A stretch of DNA of 64,000 nt. Origin: Apostichopus japonicus. Its lineage: Eukaryota; Echinodermata; Holothuroidea; Aspidochirotida; Stichopodidae. The notes beneath the pieces were generated by a model, which saw nothing but the letters and a program-made list of their open reading frames with translations, made no database searches and was not told where the DNA came from. The stretch covers positions 1,794,001 through 1,858,000 of the forward strand of contig NC_092577.1 of assembly GCF_037975245.1 (NCBI RefSeq), in the 5' to 3' direction. Every line of letters begins with the position of its first letter. Within the stretch, counting starts at the first letter, position 1. The position numbers were made by a program, and so were the translations under genes. Positions 3,401 to 53,300 of the stretch are shown piece by piece.

Positions 3401-6400
3401 CTCACATCACCCCGCTCCTCACATTACCCTACTTTCCCCTTTCATCACCCTACTCCCACTCACATACCCCTGCTTCCCCGCTCATATCACCCTGCTTCCC
3501 CCTGACATCACCCTGCTCACCCTCACATGCCCCAGTTTAACCCTCAAATCCCCCTCACATCAACTGCTTCCTCCCTCACATCACCCTCCTTCCCCCATCA
3601 CATCAACTGCTTCCTCCCTCACATCACCCTCCTTCCCCCATCACATCAACTGCTTCCTCCCTCACATCACCCTCCTTCCCCCCTCACATTACCATGCTTT
3701 CCCCTACATCATCAAGTAAATGCCAAGATTTGCAAACACATCAGCTAGATTTGCATACACATGAGCTAGATTTGCATACACATGAGCTAGATTTGCATAC
3801 ACATGATTTGCAAACACATAAGCTAGATTACAATTTATCCATACCACCATTACTGCACAGTTTGTGTTAAGAAACAAACATTGCATACCATCCATACTCA
3901 TAACCCCTCCCCACCCCCCCCCTCTCATCTTCCACCCTCCATCTCTTCCTTCTCATCTTCATTTAATTTGATACCTGTTAATGGCAGAACAATGTTAACA
4001 CTTTACCAAGTGCTGTATGGTGTTGTACACATGAATAAAATGGATGAAACGTGAAACAGAATCAGAACGTGAGTGTAAAATGGAAGGATTGTGTTGAGGT
4101 AAGATGAGATGAAAAATAGGTACAAACAAAGATGGTAGAATGAAGAAACTGGGTAGCGTCACATCAGCAACATTAACTTAGTCAGGTAACCTACTCTGTG
4201 AAGATGGGTAGAGTTACGTCAGTTATATTTACTTTGGTGGGTAGAGTTACGTCAGTTATATTTACTTAGGTGGGTAACCTACTCTGTGAAGATGGGTAGC
4301 GTCACGTCAGTTATATTTACTTAGGTGGGTAACCTACTCTGTGAAGATGGGTAGCGTCACGTCAGTTATATTTACTTAGGTGGGTAACCTACTCTGTGAA
4401 GATGGGTAGAGTTATGTCAGCTATATTTATTTTGGTGGGTAACCTACTCTGTGAAGATGGGTAGAGTTACGTCAGTTATATTTACTTAGGTGGGTAACAT
4501 ACTCTGTGAAGATGGGTAGCGTCACGGCAGTTATATTTACTTAGGTGGGTAACCTACTCTCCAAAGATGGGTAGAGTTACGTCACTTATATATTTATGTA
4601 TGCATTGTGTTCACCATGCTCATTTACCTGTCTGTATTCGGTGCGTGTTTTTGTCCCTTCTGTTACTGTTACTTGTCATTTAGCCTTTGAAGATCATGCT
4701 AGGACCGAAACGTCAGGCCAACTTACTTTTACACATTCTCTTACACAGGCTCTCGAGTGAATAAGCAGTTTGCTAACAGTTTTATTTTATTTGAGTTATA
4801 TAATTACTTTGGTGGGTAACCTACTCTCCGAAGATGGGTAGAGTTATGTCAGCAACATTAACCGATGCAGATAAACTACTCTGTGAAGATGAACTTCAAA
4901 TTTGAATTTCAAAACTAATTTCAAAAGTATTTGGTATCCCCCAATCCAACCTGAATCAACCACTCACTCGAACTGAGGACTGCAAACTCTTATTATCTTA
5001 GCTATTAGTCTTTAACTATTTAGTACTAATTATTAATTAATTAGTTCATAAAATATTAACGTCATATTCAGGGAATACAATCCAAATCCAACTCAACTTA
5101 CCTGAATGTTTTTACGATGGTATCCCACACACCTCTGTACTGGGAATGTTGGTCCTGCAGTCTGGACCGCACCACTTGGTACGGGTACGTTGTCACGACA
5201 GCGAACATCTTTGAGACGGCCGCAAAGGTGATGTATTCCATGGCACCCTGCAGAGACATGGCATGTATTATGTAATATCGGACATGTATAAAAACCATGT
5301 ATACTTCCTCTTACTGAGCACAAGGAATTGAATAACCTAGAACACACCACCGGTGTAAAGTGGGGCCACGCAAAGAACCTTCTGTGGGGGTCTGCAAGGT
5401 TTTCTGAAGTCGACTAATTAGACCTTCTGAACCTAATAATAACCATAAATCGACTAAAACAATGAACTCACTGAATGACGCAAGAGGACAAACATGGCAT
5501 TTTGGGGCATTTTGTTAACATATTGTCCGACCTACTTATGATGATGATAATAATAATAATACTGATTTTAAATAGCGCATTATACCGGCGGTCTCAATGC
5601 GCTTTATTCAATGATAACAGTGTATTCTGAAATAATTGATTGGCAATGTCCCATGCAGAAGTGTATAATCTGTCATTACCCATATGCAGACTCACACTTA
5701 GATAAAATTTGATGCCCCCCAGTACTAGTAGAAACACGTCTTTGTTCTTTTCAACTTTTGCAAGATTTTATGAAACAATATCATATAATGAACATTATAT
5801 AATAATAATAACCTAGAGAGAGCCCTCTTACCAGTTGCACTGTTGGTGAAAGACCCTTGTAGGATGTATAGTGCTTCTTTAGCTCCTCATAGGCCATGAA
5901 CTGGAGGGCCCCATGTGAAACACCAAACAAACCCGGAATGAAACCCTGACGAATCATAACAAAAAAGACAAATAATAAAATCTTTCGCTGATATCGTCAA
6001 TCTCATGATTTTTAATGTCTTAGCTAGTTTTAGAACAGGAAGATTACAAAAGAGGAAGTAAATAGTCTATGTTAGGCAATGTTCCCCAAAGTGTAATAGT
6101 GTCTGTGTTCTTGTTTAATACTAACCTATGAATCAAAGAGAAGATAATATTCTGTGTTATTATACAAATCGTTCGTACGTAAACTAAACGCTCACCAAAA
6201 AAAAACAATTGTTAGAGGCTCCATATACAAGGGTTCAAACCAAGTTAGAATTTATGTGTAAACAGGGCACTACAAAATGATAAAGGGACTATTTTAATAA
6301 TTCACACAATTAAATTTTCACACTTAGGGCCCGCTACAGATACTCATTTGTGCCTAATTCTATCCATATATTTAATTCACAAGTGAGAAGATAAGTTTCT

Positions 6401-15800: not shown

Positions 15801-18800
15801 AACCCAAAAATACAAGACAATGCAACACAAAGTTCCTAATTGATCTAAAATATCTTTTATCACGATGATTTGTCTATTTTAAAAGATCCTTTGTGTTGAT
15901 TTTCATCTGAAAGGATCCACCATGTTGATTTGTTTGATCTGATCATGTTGTTAATTTGTTATGTTATGATCCATCATGAAGTTGAGTTGCAGATCCGTGA
16001 GGATGATTTGTCTACTTCAAAAGATCCGTTGTGTTGACTGTTTGCTGAAAGGAAAGGATCCACCACATTGATTTGTTTGATCTCATCATGTTGTTATGTA
16101 ATGATCTCATGATGTTGAGTTGCAGATCCATGAGGATGATTTGTCTACTTCAAAAGATCCATTGTGTTGACTGTTTGCTGAAAGGAAAGGATCCACCACA
16201 TTGATTTGTTTGATCTCATCATGTTGTTATGTAATGATCTCATGATGTTGAGTTGCAGATCCGTGAGGATGATTTGTCTACTACAAAAGATCTGTCGTGT
16301 TGACTCTTTGCTGAAAGGAAAGGATCCACCATGTTGATTTGTTTGATCTGATCATGTTGTTATGTTTGATTTATAATGATCTTTTTGATGTTGAGTTGCA
16401 GATCCATGAGGACAAGGATCATGGTGATCCTACTCTGGTTCGGTTCCTGTGCGCAACCAAGCTCAACATACCCAAACATAATATCACCTGTGAGGGGATA
16501 GGACTCTCAGAGAATACCATCCCGGACGTTAACGGTAAGACACGATTTTAGATGTCAAAACTCTCATCCATTTGTATAGTTGTTGGAGACCTGCAACTCT
16601 CTACAACTACCAAATTTGTAATACAGGGATAAGTCAGTTTAACCATCACTGCTTTTAATAAACATCATGCTATCAGGGTTTTTTTTTTCATAAATTAACT
16701 ATAAAAGAAGTCTGAAAAATTGTTTAAGGTCAATAGAGCTAGAAAAAAGATGTGAATAAAAGTCTAAAAGTAAAAATGAGTTCAGGCTTCAGTATGTACT
16801 TTATAGTATCACACTTTTATGGATTAATTTTTAATTATTCCAAAATGTTGAAAATAATTAGCATAATTAAGCTTCCTCATTCATTTAAGTATCTGTTGTT
16901 GCTCTTGTCAAAAGATCTTAGGAGCCGACTAGAAGCCATCAAGAAAACCAGAAGGAACAGTTTTTCACGGGCTATGGAAAATGCTTTCCAGCAGATTGCT
17001 CTTGTAGTCCTTAGCAACGGCAAGGTAGCAGTGGAGTTGTGTTCAGAGAAACCAGACGAAATGGTCTTCTTGGACGATCTTTTACGAAAGCAGATCATCG
17101 AGGTACGGTAATAAGTCAAGTTGCCCAAATATCATCTTCCCATTGAGGGAATAATTTAACCCGTATAGAATAACAAAACCACATTGCAACTTAACGTGGG
17201 CAAATTGCTATGCAAGTGCAAAGATTTATACAGCAGTTTTTAACACACGAACCATTGTATATTTAGGAGACAAACTTCATGGCATTCAAATTTGCAAGAA
17301 AAAATGTGATTCATTCAATTATTTCCCTGCATTGTGAGTACATATCTTTCATAGAAACTAGAGACCATTCAATGATTTTATAGTCTGTAATTTACATGAA
17401 AAATATATTTTTGTGCTCAGTGATAAATAACGAGGTTTCCAATAACCTTAACGTGTTTTAACATTGAAGTGGCTTTTATTTCGGACAAAATACTTGTCTC
17501 CAGATGGCGTGTTCTAAAGGTTTTGACGATCATCCTTGAAACAAAGAATGATAGAAACATCGAAAAATGATCTCCTTTCTCTTGTAAATGTAAACCTTGA
17601 TGTTTACATGACTGGATCAACATCAATATAACCATGTCTGTGGTTTTAAATGTATCCTAACAATGAGATTAAAATCTCTTTAAACACCTCCTTTAAAAGC
17701 TTTTGGGTTGGTGCATGAACCACCAAAGCACTAAGGCCCTTAAAACATCACCTCCTTCTCTCTCTCTAATGTTCTTGGTTGGTGAGCTACAGTTGTTAAT
17801 ACATAAACATACAATTGTAAAATCCATATTGTGGTTTGAAAAATATTCCACCTTCTCCAAACTCCATGTCCCCCGAAATGATCTTATTACTTAGACTATT
17901 TACAGATACCATTTTGTTGACTATTAATTGAACCAAAACCATAGTTGCTGGTATAAACCTTTACATCAGCAGTGCATAACATTAAATGATGTAATGAGAT
18001 ACATTTATGCAAAGAATTTCTCGTACAGTCCTCTACAGTATATGTACTGTATACAGTGGTTTTGTACGATAATGTGCCAACCCAGTATTGGACAAGAAAA
18101 CCTTGATCACTACGTCTGGTTCAAATGATTGTTTATGATCATTTTAATTCACAGAGGGACTAAAACTACTGTTAGTAAACTGTTTAAGTATTGCAAAAAC
18201 ACCTGTAGGTAAAGATATAATAGTTAGAGGGCCTAACCTGTTTGATTCTACCAGGAGCTTTTTTAATATATGTAGCTCTATTTTCTCCAATGTGAAATAC
18301 CAGCTCAAGGGGCTAAATTTGCTTTGGGTTGACCATAGGGTTGAGACTAAATGACGTGTGATTTACGAAAACCAATTAGACTTCCTGAAAAAAGGTTGTG
18401 AACAAGGTAATCAGTTTTCTTACAAAACAGTCAAAAAAATGTATGGCCTGAAATGTTATTGCCTTCAAGTTATGCATGCCAAAGATTTGTGCTTTCATGG
18501 ATATTCTGTGTAGTTGAAAATTTCTCCCAGACATTTCAGAAGGATTAGAAAAAGTAAAGATAAAATTCTCAGAGAGGGAAAACACTTTGAGGTTGGCATT
18601 AGTAGTACTTAGTAAAGTTGAGAGACCATTCTTTGACTATCTAGCTTATTTTACTAGCTAGGTAGGTAGCTAGCTAGATCACCTGGCCAGATGTTTGATT
18701 GAGTTTTTTTTTTGATCTTCTTCAGGTCAATAATGTGGAAGGGCTTGAAGAAGAAATGACAGAGAAGCAAGATAATTCAGTCATACCCAAGGATGGTTCT

Positions 18801-18854
18801 CTACTTGATGCAATGAACAATGAAATACTCCTTGATCTTATGATGGATATCTGA
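12698..18854 (+). CDS. RDM1: RAD52 motif-containing protein 1 (6 coding exons)
   Basis: A complete 302-residue protein; the human protein is 284. Exons are 12698-12823, 13934-14152, 14705-14818, 16402-16534, 16915-17102 and 18726-18854, all GT-AG with consistent phases. Residues about 24-122 form an RRM: LYVTGL is RNP2-like and SYYAFVKFY RNP1-like. A RAD52-type motif follows with GFNGW at 143-147, then a C-terminal helical block at about 198-240 (SRAMENAFQQIALVVLSNGK) that matches the human RDM1 layout. RDM1 is known as a DNA/RNA-binding protein linked to recombination repair and cisplatin response. The exon 4 acceptor and the terminal exon are each part of a local tandem array. Orthology rests on remembered family sequence. 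Confidence 0.9.
13155..13448 (-). mobile_element. tRNA-derived SINE, copy 1 (RDM1 intron 1)
   Basis: Minus-strand element with A box TGGCTGAGTGG (13440-13430) and a degenerate B box GAGTTTGAAACC (13379-13368). The head has a long variable-arm-like insert, suggesting descent from a Leu- or Ser-type tRNA. The 3' end is GGTTTCTCCCACA followed by a GATTATT-type tail. It shares its whole length with the copy at 15.36 kb. Confidence 0.8.
13934..14152 (+). CDS. RDM1: RDM1 exon 2
   Basis: Seventy-three codons in phase 0 forming the core of the RRM: IKLHTVFSEFGLLYEIQVFP through SRSYYAFVKFYSSFAAAKAV. An acidic EEEDKDH loop separates two strands. Acceptor CTTCATCAG, donor GTACAG. Confidence 0.92.
14705..14818 (+). 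CDS. RDM1: RDM1 exon 3
   Basis: Thirty-eight codons: the last RRM strand VSFATRK and the RAD52-motif phrase LAQHYLGFNGWNSHVVH. Acceptor TGTCTGCAG, donor GTAAGT. Confidence 0.93.
15358..15628 (+). mobile_element. tRNA-derived SINE, copy 2 (RDM1 intron 3)
   Basis: Same family as 13155-13448 but opposite orientation. A box TGGCCAAGTGG (15367-15377), decayed B box near 15433, body with TTTTTCATCCAAAG, and 3' end GGGTTTCTCCCACAATTATT. The two copies form a potential inverted-repeat pair about 2 kb apart in one pre-mRNA. Confidence 0.8.
15862..16401 (+). repeat. 133-bp tandem array duplicating the RDM1 exon 4 acceptor
   Basis: Four units of about 133-143 bp. The phrase GTTGAGTTGCAG recurs at 15981, 16114, 16247 and 16390; the last is the real exon 4 splice acceptor. 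After it the three upstream copies read ATCC[AG]TGAGGATGATTTG, against ATCCATGAGGACAAGG in the exon, so the first exon codons were copied too. Each upstream copy would run into an early stop. Confidence 0.88.
16402..16534 (+). CDS. RDM1: RDM1 exon 4
   Basis: Encodes IHEDKDHGDPTLVRFLCATK, then NITCEGIGLSENTIPDVN, and ends one base into a codon at GTAAGA. Its acceptor is the last unit of a tandem array. Confidence 0.9.
16915..17102 (+). CDS. RDM1: RDM1 exon 5
   Basis: Encodes DLRSRLEAIKKTRRNSFSRA and MENAFQQIALVVLSNGKVAV to KQIIE. This block aligns with the C-terminal conserved part of human RDM1. Acceptor GTCAAAAG, donor GTACGG. Confidence 0.93.
17103..18725 (+). other. RDM1 intron 5
   Basis: A 1.6-kb AT-rich intron. 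I see no further exon, recognisable repeat family or RNA gene in it, apart from a short CTAGCTAGGTAG-type repeat near 18.65 kb. Confidence 0.6.
18726..18854 (+). CDS. RDM1: RDM1 exon 6 (C-terminus and stop)
   Basis: Forty-two codons plus TGA: VNNVEGLEEEMTEKQ, then DGSLLDAMNNEILLDLMMDI. The acidic, hydrophobic end resembles the LSDFSLEEEE-type tail of human RDM1 only loosely. The second half of this exon starts the 174-bp array. Confidence 0.88.
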   Translation, partial: VNNVEGLEEEMTEKQDNSVIPKDGSLLDAMNNEILLDLMMDI

Positions 18855-19650
18855 TATACAGGTAGGATGGATCCAGTAGCCTATACCTGTTGCCACGGAG
18901 ACTAACTTTTTTTGACAATGATATCAACTTATATGCGGATATCTTATATGCGGATATATTACGGATGGTTCTCTACTCGATGCAATGAACAATGAAATAC
19001 TCCTTGATCATATGATGGATACCTGATATACATGGTAGGATGGATCCAGCAGCCTATACCTGTTGCCACGGAGACTAACTGTTTATGACAATGATATCCA
19101 CTTATATGCGGGGATATCTTATATGCGGATATATTAAGGATGGTTCTCTACTCGATGCAATGAACAATGAAATACTACTTGATCATATGATGGATACCTG
19201 ATATACATGGTAGGATGGATCCAGCAGCCTATACCTGTTGCCACGGAGACTAACTGTTTTTGACAATGATATCCACTTATATGCGGATATCTTATATGCG
19301 GATATATTAAGGATGGTTCTCTACTAGATTCAATGAACAATGAAATACTCCTTGATCTCATGATGGATATCTGATATACAGGTAGGATGGATCCAGCAGC
19401 CTATACCTGTTGCCACGGAGACTAACTGTTTATGACAATGATATCCACTTATATGCGGGGATATCTTATATGCGGATATATTAAGGATGGTTCTCTACTC
19501 GATGCAATGAACAATGAAATACTCCTTGATCTAATGATGGATATCTGATATAAAGGTAGGATGGATCCAGCAGCCTATACCTGTTGCCACGGAGACTAAC
19601 TGTTTTTCAAAATGATATCCACTTACATGCGGATCATTTTCACACATATG
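18791..19650 (+). repeat. 174-bp tandem array of the RDM1 terminal exon
   Basis: Five units beginning GGATGGTTCTCTACT at 18791, 18963, 19138, 19311 and 19485 (spacings 172-175). The first is the real coding end of RDM1 with its stop; the others repeat about 65 bp of coding sequence, the stop region and about 105 bp of 3' flank holding a GCGGATATCTTATATGCGG palindrome-like motif. Copies still encode SLLDAMNNEILLD with few changes. Confidence 0.92.
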
Positions 19651-19968
19651 TCTGTGACTGAACCTAGTCTCAGGGATTCTGCCCAATTATCAGGAGAGTC
19701 ATTCCTATCTAGCAGTTTCCAGCTGTAAAGTAACAAAATGTTATATGAGCAAATCTGAAAATGTTAGCAATCACAGCAATTGGTTGCAGGAGTTAACCTT
19801 AAACCTACTGTGTGTACGATCTGCTCCCTGTATCATTGTGAACACAGTCTTGTAACTCCCTTGCTCTAGTAATATTCATGATTAATATTTCAAAATAAAA
19901 TAAAATAAAACTGTTAGCAAACTGCTTATCCACTAGAGAGCCTGTGTAATAGAATGTGTAAAAGTAAG

Positions 19969-20013
19969 TTGGCCTGACGTTTCGATCCTAGCAGGATCTT
20001 CTTCAGAGGCTAA
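19969..20013 (-). ncRNA. Hammerhead ribozyme motif, sense arm of PLE insertion A
   Basis: Mirror of 20820-20864 and identical to it. On the minus strand: stem I strand TTAGCCT, core CTGAAGA, stem II GATCC-TGCTA-GGATC, GAAAC, GTC cleavage triplet, stem I strand AGGCCAA. This arm is in the sense orientation of the element. Stem III has no loop (GAAAC directly followed by GTC), which favours a dimeric active form. Confidence 0.75.
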
Positions 20014-20320
20014 ATGACAAGTTACAGTAACAGAGGGGACAAAAACACGCACAGAATACAGACAGGTTAATGAGCACGGTGAACACAATGAGATGGATGA
20101 AAGGGGATTATAAGTAGAAAGCAACAGGAGAAGAGGAGAGGAAGGAGATAAACTGTGGAGGGACAAAGAGAGGATTAAAGGCACAGGGTAGGGAATAAAC
20201 TGGAGAGGGACAAAGACAGAAAGGTGTGAAGAAAAATGGAGGGGAAGAGAGCTGTGAGAAGAAGAGTGAAAGGGGGGGGGGGAGGGAGAAAGGGGAGAAG
20301 GAGTAGGGAACAGAGGAAAG

Positions 20321-20625
20321 TTAGTCATGTCCTTCCTGAAAGTTCAGCCCATGAGGTTGAATGGTACGGAGGCGTTGCATCCAGAGCCTCTCTCTGCTGA
20401 TTCGTACTAGGTCAGGACGGCTACCTAAGGATTCAATCCCCTGTAGGGACATGTCGTTAATGGTATGGTTGGGAAGGTTAAAATGTTCTCCAACTGGGGT
20501 CTCAGTCTTCATGGTGTTGACTGTGGATCTGTGACCATAGAATCGCTTCTTGAGGGTGGTTTTGGTTTCGCCAACATACTGGATGCCGCAAACTCTACAA
20601 GAGATCAGATAGATGACATTGGTCC
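20321..20625 (-). pseudogene. GIY-YIG endonuclease C-terminal fragment of PLE
   Basis: The minus-strand frame reads TNVIYLISCRVCGIQYVGET followed by KTTLKKRFYGHRS, and ends in LNFQEGHD and TAA. VIYLISC..QYVGET matches the GIY-YIG core with a CxxC-like pair, and the R in KKRFYGHRS fits the second motif. In PLEs this domain follows the reverse transcriptase. Here the frame starts abruptly at the inverted arm, so the polymerase is absent and the gene is not functional. Confidence 0.88.
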
Positions 20626-20819
20626 CTCTCCAGTTTATTCCCTACCCTGTGCCTTTAATCCTCTCTTTGTCCCTCCACAGTTTATCTCCTTCCTCTCCTC
20701 TTCTCCTGTTGCTTTCTACTTATAATCCCCTTTCATCCATCTCATTGTGTTCACCGTGCTCATTAACCTGTCTGTATTCTGTGCGTGTTTTTGTCCCCTC
20801 TGTTACTGTAACTTGTCAT

Positions 20820-20864
20820 TTAGCCTCTGAAGAAGATCCTGCTAGGATCGAAACGTCAGGCCAA
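20820..20864 (+). ncRNA. Hammerhead ribozyme motif, inverted arm of PLE insertion A
   Basis: Stem I TTAGCCT/AGGCCAA pairs at six of seven positions. Core CTGAAGA (20827-20833) fits CUGANGA. Stem II is GATCC/GGATC with loop TGCTA. GAAA at 20850-20853 is followed by C and GTC, giving predicted cleavage after 20857. PLEs are known to carry such minimal type I hammerheads. This copy lies antisense to the element. Confidence 0.75.
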
Positions 20865-21955
20865 CTTACTTTTACACATGATTAATATTTATTATATAAT
20901 ATGTTGTAAATATTTATTCCATTTTCTCTGTCTAATCTTGTATGTAGTTTCCTGGTTTATGTTAATGACTGCTGGGAGAATGAAAGTAATGTACTGTAAG
21001 AGACTATAGTAGAGGACCTTTAATGAAATTTCGTAATGTAACCATAGCAACATATGTTACAACAATTTAACCGATAATGTGAGTTTGCAAAGAGATGTAC
21101 AAACCATCTCTGTTAAATTAATTAACTTCTTTTGTTTCATAGCTCTGACTTATATTAAATTGGAGTGTTATTTGTTTGTGTCCAGCTTTGTAAAGATAGA
21201 AGAAATATACCCAATTACTCTTACTAGAACTTTCTTGTTATATTTGCACTTAAAACAAAGGATAATTTTTTTTAGCTCATCCAAGTAAACTGGTGTGGCA
21301 TGGGGAATGGGTGTACAGAGATGAGTTAACCCCCTTTCGATTTCAGATTGTGATTCATGTTGGTTAGTTGAAAGATGTTGTTATATTTTGTTGAAGATTT
21401 TAACATCTTCTTTTTTTTTCACAAAATGAATATCGGCAATTTATTTTTCCTTCAGAAACAATTTTCACGACCCTAAAGGTGTCGCGACCCCAACTTCTAA
21501 TACCAAGGGTGTAAGCCAACCTAACTTAACTAGCTGATAAACAGGAAGGAGAGAAAACACAGTATATATACCTGTTGCCATGGTAAATGCTTTTGCATTA
21601 GATGGGAGTATAGATTGCACAGTGTAAAGGATAGTTTAGCATCAAAACAAATATCCATATGATTGATACATTTCAATCTAGTGGTTTCAGATTTTGGGAC
21701 TTGGGATGGTAGGGTTGTAAACTACTACTGTATATCACAAAATGTCAGAGTTGTAACAGCAAATGAATAAAACTTTATTACTGAAACTTCCCTCATAGCA
21801 AACCCACAGAAGAGAGTGGCTACAAAATGTGGGAGTGTAACATACAAGAATAAATAATGTACAGTTACAAGTAAATATTAGCAAAGAAAAGTCAAATAAA
21901 TTTATTACCGTACTTCATTTCTGTAGGCTGTTTTATGGTCTGTTTAATACTGCAG

Positions 21956-40610: not shown

Positions 40611-41337
40611 TCACGAGTTCCAATGGTCCGAAGAGTGAACCTATATAGTGAACATATTTTGCTTTTTGTGTCTATGCGGGCCTCTCTCTCTCCTTCTTTC
40701 TAGATTTATGTGTTGGTATTCTGGTAGCTTGGTGCGATCAGAGACAACTTTCTTCTAAAACAGAGTTGTAGTTCGGGTTAAATCTGAAAAGCCTAGTATC
40801 CGAAATATTGAAACTTACCTTAATTCTCAGTGAAAGCAACTAGAGGTAGGTGACAGATTATCACACTGGGATGCCAACTTGGGAGGCTGAGGGAAGGGGG
40901 TTGGGCTAGTCTAGGAGAGAAAAGGAGGGGTGAGTGGGTAGTAAAAGTTAAGCAGTACGGCTCAAACTAGCAATTCCTCTCATTGAGAAAGAAAACATTG
41001 GTTTTGTACCACATAAAGTAAGATACTAGACAGTCACTATATAGTCAGTTTTCTGTTACATTATTCACCAATATTTCAAATGGAGATGATTTTCCTTTTC
41101 TGTAAATTTGTTGCTTTGTCTCTTAGCCATCAAACCAATGCTAGCAACACAGGTGTCAATAATGTGGTAGAGTAGAATACAGCAGAGACATCTTGTACTA
41201 GTAGAAACAGTGGAGGAACCACCCATCCCATCCCTCTGCACCCCTCTCCTTGACCCCACCTCCACCCCACTCACGCCCCTGCTACGTCAAAGATACATTG
41301 CCGTTTCCTGTTACCATAATTTACTGTGTAAAAGTAA

Positions 41338-41383
41338 GTTGGCCTGACGTTACGATCCTAGCAGGATCTTCTTCAAAGGCTAA
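41338..41383 (-). ncRNA. Decayed hammerhead motif, inverted arm of insertion B
   Basis: The minus strand reads TTGAAGA for CTGAAGA and GTAAC for GAAAC. Both are core positions, so this arm should be inactive. Stem II GATCC/GGATC is kept. Confidence 0.55.
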
Positions 41384-41409
41384 ATGACAAAGGCTAAATC
41401 ACTTGTCAT

Positions 41410-41454
41410 TTAGCCTCTGAAGAAGATCCTGCAAGGATCGAAACGTCAGGCCAA
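41410..41454 (+). ncRNA. Hammerhead ribozyme motif, sense arm of insertion B
   Basis: Stem I TTAGCCT/AGGCCAA, core CTGAAGA, stem II GATCC-TGCAA-GGATC, GAAAC and GTC all match the copy at 20820-20864; only the stem II loop differs (TGCAA for TGCTA). Predicted cleavage follows GTC at 41447. Confidence 0.72.
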
Positions 41455-44400
41455 CTTACTTTTACACATTCTCCTACACAGGCTTTCTAGTGGATAAGCA
41501 GTTTGCTAACAGTTTTATTTTATTTTACCATAATTTACTGAATGAAAAGGAAAGAAAATGAAAAAAAAAATTAAAAGACAAGGAAATGTTTTGATATAAA
41601 TCTTGTAATCAAACATCAACATAGGAACCATTAATCTCTTTGCAATGATACATATTCATATATACATAAATGCATATTCATGATTTCTTTCTTTTTATTT
41701 TCCTCAATGATGCCTATTGCACATTGCTATCCAATATATACTACAGAAAGAGTACATGCCCTTGGACCCTCTCTGTGCGGAATACTAACATTTGTGAGAA
41801 AAAGTCGAACCAAATAAAAGCTAATGGGAGGGGGGGGGGGGGAAGAAAAAAATGTTAATTAGCCACAATTTAATATTTTTGTACTTCTCTGATCAAAAGG
41901 AATGTTTGTAACAACAAGTTATAAGTTACGACTTGTACCATAGAACACAGAACAAGCTGTTCTTAATTATAATACTGCACTTTGCCAATGCTTACTGCTC
42001 CCAACCCCCTCCCCCACACCTTAATCATAAGCTACTGAGATTAAGGTTAGTGTCATAACCATGGATTTCACAAACGAAAGAATGTTTATTATACTAATTT
42101 TATGCTAAATTGCTGTACCCATCATGTTAAATGACACTGACCCTCATTACTGCCTAAGTGTAAATTCTTTCATTCACATTACAGACAAGAAGTGGAAGGG
42201 GCACTCTTTGGTCATGATTTTGACTTGGACAAAATTGGAAACATTATTTTTCAGACCACAATATTTGGCCCCAAAATATGCTAGAAAATCAAACAATGGC
42301 CACTGATGCTCAAACTTAACACTGATTTTACTGTCAACCCTTTCAGCATTACTCCCTTACTGAGACCACCTTTTTTACCACTTCTAAATCTCTCTGAATA
42401 ACTTGAAAGGTTAGAACCCTCCGGCATGCTTATGTGGGCTTATATGGGCTAAATGCTGATGACCAGTAAGGGCCATGGAATGACGTGTGCCTAAGATATC
42501 TGAGTTTGGCATATCCAGAATCTCAGATTAAGTTCTTTTGTTCATGAATAATAAACATAAATACTTCAATGAAAATGTAACTTGACCTGCCCTAAAAGGG
42601 TTTATAGCATTAAAATATGCCATTGAATGTGACTCAGTAAATACTCACTGGTATTGAATCGGGTGAAACAACATACGCCCGACAAACCAATAATCAAACA
42701 AGACATATTAAACAGGCCATCAAAAATGCATATTGAACAAAAGGCATCATTCATACCCAATGAATGTAGTAGCACCATGCTATTTATACTTCCATTGCAC
42801 CCCAACCCCCCACCACAACCACCACAACATTCACATCCAAACAAACATTGGCAGAAAACGTGTCGACTGAATGAATGTCAAAATTTTCTTTACTAACATT
42901 TGCCTGATTTTGTATTTTTATTTCCAAAAGGTTAAGATATAATGATATAAATGAGTTTGTAATGGTAGCCTCTCCTCATTGGTATATCCAGCTGTGTAAT
43001 ATAGGTTTAAAAGCCTCTCTCTAATCAAAGTAGTGAACCATGCCAGGCTATGTAACATCACATAATAATAACGCAGACATTATTAGCAATGATGAAGACA
43101 CACCATCCTGAGTATTATCTGCATTCGAAGAATAAATGTCATATCTTTTCACAGACTTGTAACAAAACAGTAATATCGACAGTCTGCAAAACCCACGACC
43201 AAAATATTAGCTAACGACTGCAGATATTTGCAAAATTGAAATTAGAAAATCCATGTGTTAAGCTCCTCCAGTGTTAAAGACGTTCCGATCTGACGCGTTG
43301 AACCTAGAAGTATTGACAATTTTAAAATGCCACCATGCTATAACCTCTTTAGTTACACGTGCAGAGATCACTGGTAAATGAAATACAGATTGGTCAGACC
43401 GAGGGAGACGTCAGAAAGATTTCTTGAGAAGATCCTCCGTCACCTGCTACCACCCTTCCCCTCGGCAAAGCAAAGGTAAACTTGCATAAAATGAATACAT
43501 AGTTGTTAAGACGACGAACTTGAGAATTAAAATCGTACTACCTGAAATAGATGCAGTCGCATCCCTGGGCGCTATGTGACGTGTTTGTAGTTGATGTTCA
43601 TTACATCGTTACTTCTAGTCACACGATTGAACTATTATAGTCTTCCTTTAACACAAATTCATGCAAACCTTTTACAAGAATAATAAATAAGAAAATAACT
43701 TAGCAAAGTTTTACGAGGAGGAAGGAGAGAGAAATTAGAGGAGGGACATAAATGATTCTACTTGAATGTCCAATTAAATATGCTACCCCATTATCACCCC
43801 CCCCCCTCCTCATTAGCTCATCTCTTCCCTACACCCGATGATCCCCGACACACCCCCCCCCCCCCTCCGCACTGGCTATGGTTTTGTGTATATGTACATA
43901 CTACGTAGCCAAGGACATGTTCCATAATTAGATGAAGGTGACATTCGTTTGAGAGTCAACAAATTGGGGTGTTTTCATATTAAAATATGATATTCACTTC
44001 GTGAATTTCATAAATGCATCAAATCATATATTTTTTCGGAAGAGGGTTCTTCTGACAAGGCCATCCACCCCCCTCCCCCTCCCCTCTCCCCATTCCCTCT
44101 CCTCCTCTTACATTGTGGTAAAAATCAATTTTAATCTCTTAATATCCCTGCATAGAACACAAATTCAGAAACTTTGGCCCATAAGAAAAAAAATAACAGG
44201 GATGTTGATCTAAAATGTATAAAAGAAACATATATGACATAAAAGGATCATGACATTAAAGGTGACTGGTAGATCCCTTAAAACTAACCTTAATCCTCCC
44301 AGTCACCCCCATCCCACCCACCTCTCTCCCTTGAACCCCCTGCCCCACAACAACCTGTCCCACCCACTCACCTAACCACTAAACTATCAGCTGTTTTTAG

Positions 44401-47373: not shown

Positions 47374-50300
47374 CTGTGGAAATGAAATGAAAAAAAACTA
47401 CATGAGACTTCGAAGGGTTGTAGGCAGCGTCTCAGACAATAAAAAGCCCTGAAATTCTCCCTCATTTGGTTCTTAACACATCCAAAGTCAATGTAACCAT
47501 AAAAGCCAGTCGACTTTGTGATTCCTATGGAAAGAAACCTGATCAGGCCATAATCAGGTACCACTACCAAATGCCCTACTCAGGTACCACTACCATAGGC
47601 CCTAATCAGGTACCACTACCATACACCCTAATCAGGTACCACTACCATACACCCTAATCAGGTACCACTACCATAGGCCCTAATAAGGTGCCACTACCAT
47701 ACACCCTAATCAGGTACCACTGCCATACACCCTAATCAGGTACCACTACCATACACCCTAATCAGGTACCAATACCGTAGGCCCTAATCAGTCCCCTTGC
47801 TATTCATGACTCAGATAGCAGAGGTCCAAACGTAGGGCCGATTATAAAGCCCTAGCTAGGACTTATTAGGAGGGACCATCAGTGGGTCTCATAGGCTCCT
47901 AGTGTACCAGAATTACCCACTCTTACCACAAGTGCAATTCACATGAAGGCTTGCTCCTAAAATAAAACCTTGAAAGGCAAATGAAGGTAATCAGACCAGC
48001 ACATGTCTCTCTTTTGCTACCGTAGCACTTATTGTCAGACAATCTCATCAATATTCAGTGCAGACAAATGTGCGTAGGCAGTAATCATTCCTCTCAAAGG
48101 TAATTTTAATCCCTGCATTTACCAGAGTAGACAGTGTATTATGTAGATGTTTTCTACACAGTCTTGTCTGGCAAAATTTATGTTACTTTAAAAAAAACAT
48201 TCATTCATTCATTCACTCACTCACGCACGCACAGAATGAAGATGGTGCTGAGGATGGGGAGTTTAGGGGTGGGGAAGATTAGAAGGTACATCCTGTCCTA
48301 TACAAAATATGATATTCTCAATCGATGTGCATCACTCCAGTTTGCACTTATACTTAGATGGAATTTGTATGTAAACTGTGCACTTGATGTCTGTTAATGG
48401 TACTGTATGCAGATTCATTTACTTTATGGTGGGTGTATTAAGGCAAGTGTCCTACACTTGCCAGAGTGTGTATGTATGCATATACTAGGCATGTCAAGGC
48501 ATGTAAAGTGTTCGTAAATCAATGAAATGACTCCCATCCATTTGAATTTAGGCAATTTAGCTAATAATACTGTTTGCCATATAAAAAGGTTGGGTCAATT
48601 GTCTAATGTTGCAGTGCAACTCTATACTGTCGGTACTCCCGCATCATGCTGACAGTATGAACAGTTGCTAAACCTTTATCTGATTCTAATGCTAATACCA
48701 CTTGATACTGTCCTCCCATATCATGCTTCAAAGCACTCGTACTGACAGTATGAACAGTTTCTAATCTTTATCTGAAAGGAACAAACTATTCATACTGCAC
48801 ATACTGTTAGTACGATTGCTTTGAAAGCATGATATGGGGGACAGTATACAGTAGATCTAAAAAACTGACCTTATCTGAAAGAACACACAACTTATAATAT
48901 CCTTATTGTTCCTTCCATTAATACAGTAATTCTGTGATAGTGTTTGCGCCTCACAGATGATGGGGCTATACATGAAAGAACTACACCTTTGAATATGAAT
49001 ACACTCACCTGTGAGAAAGGGCAACCGTGGCTGACCAGTAACGTTGCACCTCTTTTCTCGAGGACTTGCAGAAGTCTCCGACGCACTTCGGATACCGATC
49101 CAGTGAACATGCTGCTACCTCTGCCACTGGTGCCTTTTCCCGAACAGAGAAACTGGGCGTTGTTAATGAGGTCGGGGTTCTCGCTATCATCGCTATTCCC
49201 GGAACTAGGAAAGGAAAGAAAAAGCAAAGAAAAGTTGGAGCAATGTAAGTAGACTAAATAATCATGTGCAACTGGGATCAAATGTAAGAACTGTTTAATT
49301 TAAGAGTTTTTCAAGGAATGTTCTCCTCCGTAAGATGTCCTTTGACTGTACTAGTTTTAACAATCAAGGCAAACATGTGTTTATCTTGCACCTATCTACA
49401 ATCAGGGGTTTTTAGGATGTGTTTATTTTTCTTCAAAATCCAAACACTGAAGTCAACAGGATTTAAAATATCTGCAGTGACTACAGCCATGACCAGATAC
49501 AATGAGATATGACCTGATACAATAACCTGATACAACCAGCCATGACCTGATACAACGAGATATGATCAGATACAACGAGCCATGACCTGATACAATGAGC
49601 CACAACCCACTACAATGACCTGTAACAACCAGCCATGACCTGCCCAATAAAAGTCATGACCCAAGACATGAGTTCAGACCGGATACAACAAGCCATGACA
49701 CAATACAACGAGCCATGACCTGATACAGTGAGATATAACTTGATACAACAAGCCATGACCTGAAACAAACAGCCATGACCCAATACAATGAATTAATGAC
49801 CAGATACACCCTGCCTGATAAGAGTCATGACCCAAGATATGAGTTTAGACCTGATACAACAAGCCATTACCCAATACAATGAGTCATGAGCCGATTCAAA
49901 GAGTTAAGACCCGATACACTGCATCAAGACCTGATACAAGCCGTAACCCTATACAACACAGCTATATATTCACTGGATCTAAGCAACAGATAAACTGTTT
50001 GTGGCTTTCTAAAAACCACTAGGTTCAGTGTTAAATATTGTAATTACAGGTTTCATTCCGCAAACTAATATCATTTAAAGCTGATGGATTGTCTATCTTT
50101 TACCATGAATAGCTTATCTCCCTACAGGAGTTTGAATCCTTAGGTAGACGTCCTGACCTAGTACGAATCAGCAGCCGGAGACTGTAGATGCAACGCCTTC
50201 CCACCATTCAACCTCATGAGCTCAACATTCCGGAAGGACATGACTAACTTTTCTTCTGTTTCCCCACCCCCCCCCCATCACTCCTCTTCTCATAGCTCTC

Positions 50301-53300
50301 TCGCATCCTTCTTTTCGCCACACCTTTCTGTCTTTGTCCTTCTCCAGTACCCTCTTCCCTTAATCCACTCTTTGTCCCTCTACAGTTTATCTCCTACCAC
50401 TCCTCTTCCCCTGTTGGTTTCATTCTTTCTTCTCTCCATCCCTCGTCTACTAATCCTCTTACATCTATGTCTTCTGTGTTCTGTGCGTGTATTTGTCCCT
50501 TCTATTACTGTTACTTGTCATTCAGCCTCTGAAGAAAATTCTAGATTCCTTGTAAAACTTCAAGCAAAGATTTGGTCTTCACTCTTTCCAATTTGTACAA
50601 ATTTTGAACCGATTAAACATATATGGAAGCTTTTACACAGTAGTACTACACTGAGCTGCCTTTAATCCCACCACTATGGGAAAAAAGCTTAATCACTGGT
50701 ATACCAGCATTAATACACTGTGTGATGTGTATTAAGTTAGGCTAATAACAGTTGGCAGCTTTCACACGAAGACTCGCCCAGCTTTGTGGCTAACAATAGA
50801 TTCTGTTACCATTTATGATCTAATCTAACGTGAGTGAGACCCGCATATTCCCCTGTATTGTCCATGAAGGGATAAGTTAACCACAGTGAAACCACAGACC
50901 AGATCAGAGGAATACAAACAGAGGAATACAACTTAAGATAGATCCAAGGACATGCACCACTGCATCTTGTGAATAGATTCTCAGAATAGACTGTACAGTA
51001 TTAAAGGTTGTTGATAGAAAAGGATTTTTTGTTTCGGGGTGAAGGGGTGAGGGGCCAGGGGTGAGGGGAAAGTGTTCAAATGGAGGCACAGTCTGGCTAT
51101 GACCTGATCTGAAGTGAAGTCAGTTCCCAACATACAGTAAATTAAAAGATAGTCTGGTTAGTTTGAATCCATGTGTTTGAAGTACAGCATTAGAAAAAAG
51201 TTTTAGCAACTTGGTATATATGTAATTGATTCTGGTCTAAAGCATGTATACTCATGGTCTCCGTAATAACACAATATTCACATTAAAAGTAGTAACCTTA
51301 GGCCAAAAAATTTAATAATGATGGTATGATTTTTTTTCCCTGATATAATTTAACTATACTTTACTAGACTATTATTAGATATTGACTAGAGTTTTATTTT
51401 AACCACTTCTAGTGGCTCACAATACTAGAACTGAAGAACAAGAACAATTACAAAAATGTGGAAGAATAAGGAAGGATAAAAAAAGGGCAAAAAATGGGGA
51501 AAAGAGGATAGACATTTCAGCACTTTATACTGTATTAATAGGAATAAAGAAAAAACAATAAAATCCATGAAGGGAAATGAAACAAAAAATTGACAAGGGA
51601 TTTTACTGTCACTAAATATAATCTTGCTTGTTTTACCTTCAACCTAGCTGCGTCATAATGATAATATAAAAACAAAGAAGCCAAAAGAATAATAATCATC
51701 ATAACAAAAAAGGCGACCCCACCGAAAAAAATATCTAAAAATGCGCTGGATTTTCTTCTTATCATCTTAAAGGATAAACCACAAAATTGAGTTCGATCAG
51801 CGATTTTCCTTGACTTTTAATGGGGTACACCATCTTCATTATTCAGAAAATTTGCATTTTTAATGGACTTGTACTGAAGAGAGGAATAGCAAGTTATAGT
51901 AGACTGAATCAAAACTGGGAGAACGCAACTGTATTTTATCTCTATTGTGTCGTGGAGAGCCGCCGAGTGTTTTTATCCGTCTTGATGATGATAGGCATCT
52001 CTGCCTCTCGATCCTCCATAAAACAGAAATAAATCTGAGGGAGTCTACTGTTTCTAATCCTGTTCCAGCCAGTCATATCCGTTCTTGACTTACTGTACCT
52101 TACTTGTAACATAAAGAGAATGAAAACAGGTGGGGTGAGGGGATGGGATGGGAGTAGAGAAGTGGGAGTTAGAGGGGGAGAGGAGAGGCTGTATAGGGAG
52201 TGGAATGCCATCATCAAAAAAATAATCATAGTGTAAATTTTCAACTAAGTCATATCAATAAATAACTTGCATTTAGTTTATGCCACATACTGTAGGACTC
52301 AAAAATGTAAAATTGAAGGTAAACATCTGTGTTTTTTTTATATTTATTTTTAAGGAAAAACTAGGAAAACTGACCGAAATTTATTTCAATATTATTAAGT
52401 CAGAGAATGAACTGAAGTGTATCTGGGTGTTTCACCAAACAAATGTTAGACATACCAGTCACTTTTGATACAGTGTGGCCCCTCGACAACCCTAAACGCT
52501 GAAAAGTTGTGCCACAGTTGCATTGCAACATTTCACAAGGGATGTTCTAAAAACCAGCAATTCCAGAAAATTCTGCTCTTCGAAAAACCACAAATTGAAT
52601 CCCATTTGGGTGCATGAAAATATTCCAGCTGGTATTACGGAAATTTTTCCCAATCCGAAAAAAAAAAAAGACACTTTGGGTGGTAGAAAATGAAGGAGGT
52701 CACTGAGGTCAGTGAGGGTGTACAGTGTTAAAAGATTACCAGGGCATACTAGACACGGTAGAATGCGGTGCTTAGGTTGTGGGGAGACAGGTAAGTGGGG
52801 AACGAAGTAAATAACTAAGGTTACAGATTGGAGTAAACTAGGTACCGTAGATCAAATTGAATATACATGCAGGGATGTGCCCACGCTGGGCGGCATTGGG
52901 CGGCCCCGCCCAGCACTAAAAATTACCGCCCAGCACTGTCTTAAAAATTGTGAATCCCGCCCAGCACTATTTTCATCTAAAATCCCGACATTCCTAACAA
53001 TATATTTCACACAAAAAATTTAAAAATGTAAATTGTTAGCAAAACTAGTGTATGGGCTTAAGAAGCTACACAAGTGCAGGCATTTGGCATCTGAGCACCT
53101 TCAAAAATCGAAAAATTTCTCAAAAGGGAGGGGGACACCTCCCCCCCTTAGACCCTCCCCCAGGACGGCGATCAGTATACCCGGCACTCAGGAAATCCTG
53201 GGCACATCCCTGTACATGTGTACAGCAAAGAAGAATAGATATTACTAGTGTGCTCCCACTGAAATTGGCAGCCATGCACATACATTTGTTCACAAAAACT

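What the first reader, a model, noticed from the sequence alone, without database searches (positions are those of the whole stretch)
19891..20890. Penelope-like insertion arranged as a 256-bp inverted repeat around a GIY-YIG remnant, with hammerhead motifs in both arms
The sequence shows two 256-bp arms in head-to-head orientation with no visible difference, a GIY-YIG coding end in the loop, and a 12-14 bp target duplication outside. PLEs are known for tandem terminal repeats (pseudo-LTRs) with hammerhead ribozymes and a short tail beyond the repeat. Here the repeat is inverted, so a transcript would hold one ribozyme and its complement in a long hairpin. That could block cleavage or produce dsRNA. 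Near-perfect arms suggest a recent event or formation during the insertion itself.
Basis: partly seen in the sequence, partly recalled or inferred. Interest (0 to 1): 0.82.

Follow-up and report, generated by a model that had tools for sequence, protein, structure and literature searches.

The report
Retrotransposon inserted from both cut ends
The palindrome is an ordinary-looking copy of a Penelope-type jumping element that was most likely copied into the chromosome from both cut DNA ends at once, and many sister copies in the same genome carry the same signature, which bears on how this little-understood class of element inserts.

Summary
Window 19954-20211 and 20622-20879 are 258-bp inverted arms without a difference, around the end of a GIY-YIG gene, inside a 14-bp target duplication. 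It is a Penelope-like element (PLE) copy. It is no rarity: 18 of 60 distinct insertions on two contigs are head-to-head, a hairpin pattern matches 115 places, and a second copy lies in this window. Inverted pLTRs are already published for PLEs. What I did not find stated in print is a strict asymmetry: in 74 of 79 two-armed candidates one outer end carries the ~60-nt tail and the other does not. The other five are mixed cases, none a convincing tail/tail or none/none copy. Duplications of 12 bp or more flank 27 of 40 hairpins and all seven long palindromes tested, so these are single events. Three copies with a second arm of tail alone exclude snap-back for themselves. Best explanation: both cut target strands prime reverse transcription, one at each of two internal start sites known in vitro for the anole PLE, and the two cDNA ends are joined. 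The ribozyme/dsRNA idea is untested.

The parts
19877..19890 (.). left target site duplication CATGATTAATATTT
   Evidence: 14 of 14 identical to 20877-20890
19891..19953 (-). tail (ref 666-728): T end, presumed reverse-transcription start site
   Evidence: present at one outer end only; T outer end at ref 715 or more in 61 of 62 tabulated two-armed copies
19891..20623 (-). T arm: GIY-YIG C-terminus, 3' UTR, pLTR, tail
   Evidence: 19892-20623 is 99.5% identical to one full-length copy; alignments of other copies run to 20623
20324..20623 (-). C-terminal part of the GIY-YIG endonuclease reading frame, followed by a stop
   Evidence: PF01541, E 1.3e-5; frame
19954..20211 (-). left inverted arm
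   Evidence: identical to reverse complement of 20622-20879
20622..20879 (+). N arm: right inverted arm, starts at pLTR end (ref 665), no tail
20622..20623 (.). 2-bp overlap (GT) where the two cDNA arms meet
   Evidence: body of other copies runs to 20623, arm is exact from 20622
19972..20010 (-). hammerhead-like core in the T arm (ref 609-647)
   Evidence: motif by eye; stems fold; no Rfam match
20823..20861 (+). hammerhead-like core in the N arm
   Evidence: lies within the identical arm
20877..20890 (.). right target site duplication; CAT shared with the arm end
41311..41540 (.). second head-to-head copy in the window: N arm 41317-41390 (-), T arm 41401-41526 (+), 16-bp target duplication TTACCATAATTTACTG overlapping both outer ends

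Best explanation
A two-ended target-primed reverse transcription product of a Penelope-like retrotransposon. The GIY-YIG enzyme cuts both strands of an AT-rich site about 13 nt apart (inferred from the duplications). Each of the two 3' ends primes cDNA synthesis on element RNA: one at the tail site (ref ~722-728), the other at the pLTR-end site (ref ~665). Both cDNAs run towards the RNA 5' end and stop anywhere, often near ref 605, which I take for an RNA 5' end. Their 3' ends are then joined, with a few bases of overlap or filler, giving two head-to-head arms. Shown here: the structures, the duplications, the one-tail rule, the likeness of the arms. Inferred: the two-ended priming, use of the same RNA and the joining step. 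In the window the T arm ran at least 733 nt and the N arm 258 nt; the 258-bp repeat is simply their overlap.
For: One-tail rule: 67 tail/no-tail calls by script, 66 distinct; adding L041 (short T arm read by eye), the C8:905703 palindrome and 6 of 7 long palindromes for which the outcome had been noted first gives 74 of 79 candidates. Target duplications span whole composites up to several kb. Second arms of tail alone (L029, L051, L041) and a tail arm in L025 cannot be copied from a tail-less arm. Arms share a template: divergence within copies 0.0508 against 0.0694 when re-paired, 0 of 2000 permutations as low, 57 copies; the C8:905703 palindrome has 3,308-nt arms 99.97% alike, against 99.1-99.5% to the C6 copy. 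In vitro, the anole PLE cleaves and extends both strands and starts at two sites that bound the tail (PMC11167929).
Against: 41 of 60 sampled insertions appear one-armed, so extension of both ends is not obligatory. Five of 79 candidates depart: L044, L089, L105, L014 and the C10 palindrome; C10 has a 13-bp duplication and its second start inside the coding region. Likeness of arms could also come from gene conversion. Some tail-less ends lie at ref 641-651 rather than 665 (4 of 62, L076). L077's N arm differs more from its own T arm (5 of 138) than from the T arms of eight other copies (2-3 of 138). The anole paper saw no start-site difference between the strands in bulk. Junction overlaps were not compared with chance.
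Confidence: 0.8

Rival explanations
1. Snap-back: one cDNA folds back and primes on itself (or self-priming on an antisense RNA, as proposed for rotifer PLEs), giving a palindrome from one priming event.
For: Alike arms; many palindromic centres; proposed in PMC3846280, section 11.
Against: Copies whose second arm is tail that the other arm lacks (L029, L051, L041; also L025) cannot arise by copying the own cDNA. It does not predict that one end always lacks the tail, nor arms of independent length. For the window copy alone it is not excluded by these copies.
Confidence: 0.07
2. L1-like twin priming: the second target strand anneals by chance homology to an internal RNA site.
For: Target end and N end share CAT in the window; small junction overlaps in some copies; C10 and L044 use other internal sites.
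Against: The second start is near-fixed: 41 of 62 tabulated outer N ends lie at ref 662-668. In most copies here the arms duplicate the same RNA region, which L1 inversions as I recall them do not.
Confidence: 0.1
3. Two independent insertions, or a later recombination or assembly artefact, brought two copies head to head.
For: Family is abundant: 3,436 matches to the pLTR end with up to 2 mismatches.
Against: One target duplication flanks the whole composite in the window and in many others; 115 head-to-head pattern matches against 2 tail-to-tail (spacing of the two patterns differs); junctions differ between copies.
Confidence: 0.03

Closest known systems
Penelope/Poseidon-type PLEs, anole PAc (PMC11167929; parts 1 and 2 of 4 and found passages seen)
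   Same: GIY-YIG enzyme, pLTR with hammerhead motif, tail bounded by two internal start sites in vitro, AT-rich targets, tandem units
   Different: Inverted genomic copies are not discussed in what I saw; the word 'inverted' occurs once in the main text, for a blocked 3' end. Pairing of the two start sites in one insertion is not stated there
Adineta vaga Penelope families (PMC3846280; found passages and section 11 seen)
   Same: Inverted pLTRs, head-to-head preferred, target duplication, tail optional at one of the inverted pLTRs
   Different: Few copies; self-priming on an antisense template proposed. Here the copy number gives a count and argues for two-ended priming
LINE-1 twin priming (recalled)
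   Same: Inverted 5' segment, second target strand primes
   Different: Second start here is near a fixed site and the arms usually overlap in the RNA

Membership tests
Penelope-like element | GIY-YIG endonuclease at the C-terminus | tested here: met
   PF01541 in the window, E 1.3e-5
Penelope-like element | Reverse transcriptase upstream in the same element | tested here: met
   PF00078, E 4.3e-9, in sister copy C6; the window copy lacks it
Penelope-like element | Reverse transcriptase of the telomerase-related PLE clade | not tested
   no tree was built
Penelope-like element | pLTRs in direct or tandem arrangement | tested here: met
   The full-length unit at C8:905703 repeats ref 605-728 at both ends; RT copies spaced 3,252 bp (C20) and 3,247 bp (C12)
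Penelope-like element | Optional tail beyond the pLTR | tested here: met
   26 T-only, 15 N-only, 18 with one of each, 1 undetermined, of 60
Penelope-like element | Hammerhead ribozyme in the pLTR | tested here: inconclusive
   Core motif and stems present; no Rfam match; no cleavage assay
Penelope-like element | Target site duplication, AT-rich | tested here: met
   14 bp in the window; 12 bp or more in 27 of 40 hairpins; AT-richness seen by eye, not measured
L1-type twin-primed insertion | Second start chosen by target homology at varying sites (recalled) | tested here: not met
   Outer N end at ref 662-668 in 41 of 62; exceptions C10 and L044

The most novel reading that the evidence does not exclude
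PLE integration is built as an asymmetric two-strand reaction. In one enzyme-RNA complex the two internal start sites are not alternatives but partners, one for each cut target strand, copied from the same RNA. This would explain the optional tail, the inverted pLTRs and the one-armed copies as one reaction that goes to different lengths.
Probability: 0.5. Interest if true: 0.72.

Novelty: new member of a known kind. Interest (0 to 1): 0.52.

Why it matters
[quoted passage not shown] A genome with thousands of copies gives a natural record of finished reactions. The one-tail rule is a sharp, countable constraint on the mechanism and can be checked in any PLE-rich genome and in vitro. The copy itself is ordinary.

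Tried and rejected
Rejected: the inversion as a rarity; two insertions side by side (duplications span composites); self-priming as the general account (tail-only arms); an inverted dimer as a replicating unit of its own (junctions and arm lengths differ). Rfam gave no hammerhead. The bacterial promoter scan is not informative for an animal. I did not test another PLE family or another species, and had no small-RNA or long-read data. Arm identity alone does not discriminate for the window: its N arm is as close to the T arm of C17:8761019 as to its own (1 difference in 261 each), so the same-template claim rests and on the C8:905703 palindrome.

Rows dropped or set apart: L073 was mis-cut. L020/L022, L057/L058 and L060/L061 share flanks and count once; L055 holds two insertions. 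L012's second unit is cut by the piece end. The table holds 62 of the 74 tail/no-tail copies; the pairing test used 57 of these 62, leaving out five with little or no arm overlap. Of 115 hairpin matches 50 were listed and 40 fetched, one more being L035; 9 listed ones were not fetched, two of them because they looked rearranged. One search looked for duplications in 38 of the 41 one-armed copies: 22 have a clear one with at most 19 bases of filler, 16 do not, so a short or decayed second arm could hide among those. The script calls L014 and C8a tail/tail. L014's second arm is an older, 72% identical copy without a common duplication. C8a's call comes from its inner unit starts, its outer ends being T and N. 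The script calls L105 none/none, because its right arm breaks at ref 641 into another repeat.

Full report
Observation. The window holds a 258-bp inverted repeat without a difference at 19954-20211 and 20622-20879 (one search gives 261 nt by including one difference). Shuffling shows it is far beyond chance. Between the arms lies the end of a GIY-YIG gene on the minus strand. The tail 19891-19953 is on the left only. A 14-bp duplication flanks everything. In what follows 'ref' counts along the sense strand of window 20618-19891; ref 665 is the pLTR end, ref 666-728 the tail. T is an outer end with tail (ref 700 or more), N an outer end without (ref 640-685).

Family. A DNA search gives 90 matches at 96-100% identity among the 40 scored of 3,001 candidates. 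The pLTR end (37 nt) matches 3,436 times with up to two mismatches, the reversed control pattern 0 times. Of 73 matches to the RT of a sister copy, 17 lie in open frames of 923-953 aa without a stop. One full-length copy is 3,374 nt and repeats ref 605-728 at both ends. So this is a PLE family with intact-looking members.

Survey. The 64 exact pLTR ends listed for contigs C1 and C2 gave 62 loci and, after removing duplicates, 60 insertions. 18 are head-to-head with one T and one N end, 26 have a T end only, 15 an N end only, 1 (L044) is undetermined. Of 38 one-armed copies examined, 22 have a clear duplication close to both ends, so these are truly one-armed; for the other 16 this is not shown. 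A pattern for tight head-to-head hairpins matches 115 places in the genome, a tail-to-tail pattern with a gap range of the same width matches 2 (the spacing of the two patterns differs). Of 40 fetched hairpins 38 have one T and one N end; 27 of 40 have duplications of 12-18 bp.

The one-tail rule. A script over the loci up to L120 (L073 left out, adjacent pieces joined) plus the two window copies N/T, 66 distinct. With L041 (short T arm by eye, 15 of 16 duplication), the C8:905703 palindrome and the six below, 74 of 79 two-armed candidates have one T and one N end. The five others are L044 (N plus an internal start), L089 (N plus ref 689), L105 (N plus a break at ref 641 into another repeat), L014 (T plus a separate older copy) and C10 (T plus a start inside the coding region, 13-bp duplication). 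If ends paired at random with the sampled frequencies, about half of two-armed copies would be mixed (0.49). The sampling does not ask for a tail. The pattern would miss a none/none copy with both starts inside ref 629-665; the hairpin pattern would not.

A prediction. RT-bearing copies on several contigs lie head to head. In the turn in which I fetched their other ends I first noted that each must be N. It was not fully blind: the exact T matches listed already showed none at those ends. Six of seven were N (C13, C11, C14, C8:41.31M, C9, C4: ref 664-672), with duplications of 13-20 matching bases across multi-kb composites. C10 was the exception, with a 13-bp duplication.

Template. Arms of one copy are more alike than arms re-paired between copies: 0.0508 against 0.0694 at ref 609-664, 0 of 2000 permutations as low (57 copies). 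At ref 613, 45 of 49 copies with C or T in both arms agree. The C8:905703 palindrome's 3,308-nt arms are 99.97% alike, against 99.1-99.5% to the C6 copy. L077 goes the other way. Gene conversion could add to this likeness, but many copies have diverged arms (45 of 57 with at least one difference).

Inner ends. Arms stop at many places, with a cluster at ref 593-608: 5 of 26 T-only and 4 of 15 N-only copies, and most of the hairpins, which the pattern favours by design. The full-length unit also starts at ref 605, and the centre of its palindrome has a long run of A; L034 has a T run at the same place. I read ref ~605 as the 5' end of the RNA, with extra A added by stuttering or copied from a T run in the source; this is inference. 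Junctions show overlaps of up to 6 nt, blunt joins, or fillers; the overlaps were not tested against chance.

Mechanism. The anole PLE protein cleaves and extends both strands, and its two start sites bound the tail (PMC11167929). Put together with the one-tail rule, the composites are best read as two cDNAs, one from each cut strand, each from a different start site on the same RNA sequence. Snap-back on the own cDNA fails for copies (L029, L051, L041) whose second arm consists of tail that the first arm lacks.

Known and new. Inverted pLTRs, their head-to-head preference and a tail at one of them are in print (PMC3846280). I found no statement that the two start sites pair within one insertion; the searches were made, in open-access papers only. 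Craig 2021 was not held, and older PLE papers such as Arkhipova 2006 (recalled) were not seen. The window copy is therefore a new member of a known kind; the rule is the part of interest.

Noticed in passing
window 41311-41540: A second, more diverged head-to-head copy of the same element with a perfect 16-bp target duplication.
   Followed up: yes
window 4603-4792 and 50116-50542: Further copies: a T-ended one with a 10/11 duplication (4586-4596, 4796-4806), and a degenerate one without a clear duplication.
   Followed up: partly
window 18789-19634: Tandem array of a ~175-bp unit (4.9 copies) ending about 250 bp before the insertion.
   Followed up: no
L064+L121+L065 (G000 C8:905703-912818): 6.7-kb near-perfect palindrome of two full-length units with a run of about 40 A at its centre.
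   Followed up: partly
G000 C20:31538460-31546808, C12:27030928-27035119: Tandem arrays of RT-bearing units at about 3,250-bp spacing, as expected if multimeric RNA is copied.
   Followed up: no
L064+L121+L065, start of the unit: The T start lies in a (TTTTA)n stretch of varying repeat number between copies that reads on into TTTTGATTTTCAG in the full-length unit; the variation could be slippage of the reverse transcriptase at its start, and the stretch looks like a 3' splice site.
   Followed up: no
G000 C12:18058713-18058823, C15:26511272-26511396: Two rare tail-to-tail pairs with only a short spacer, possibly two insertions at one site.
   Followed up: no
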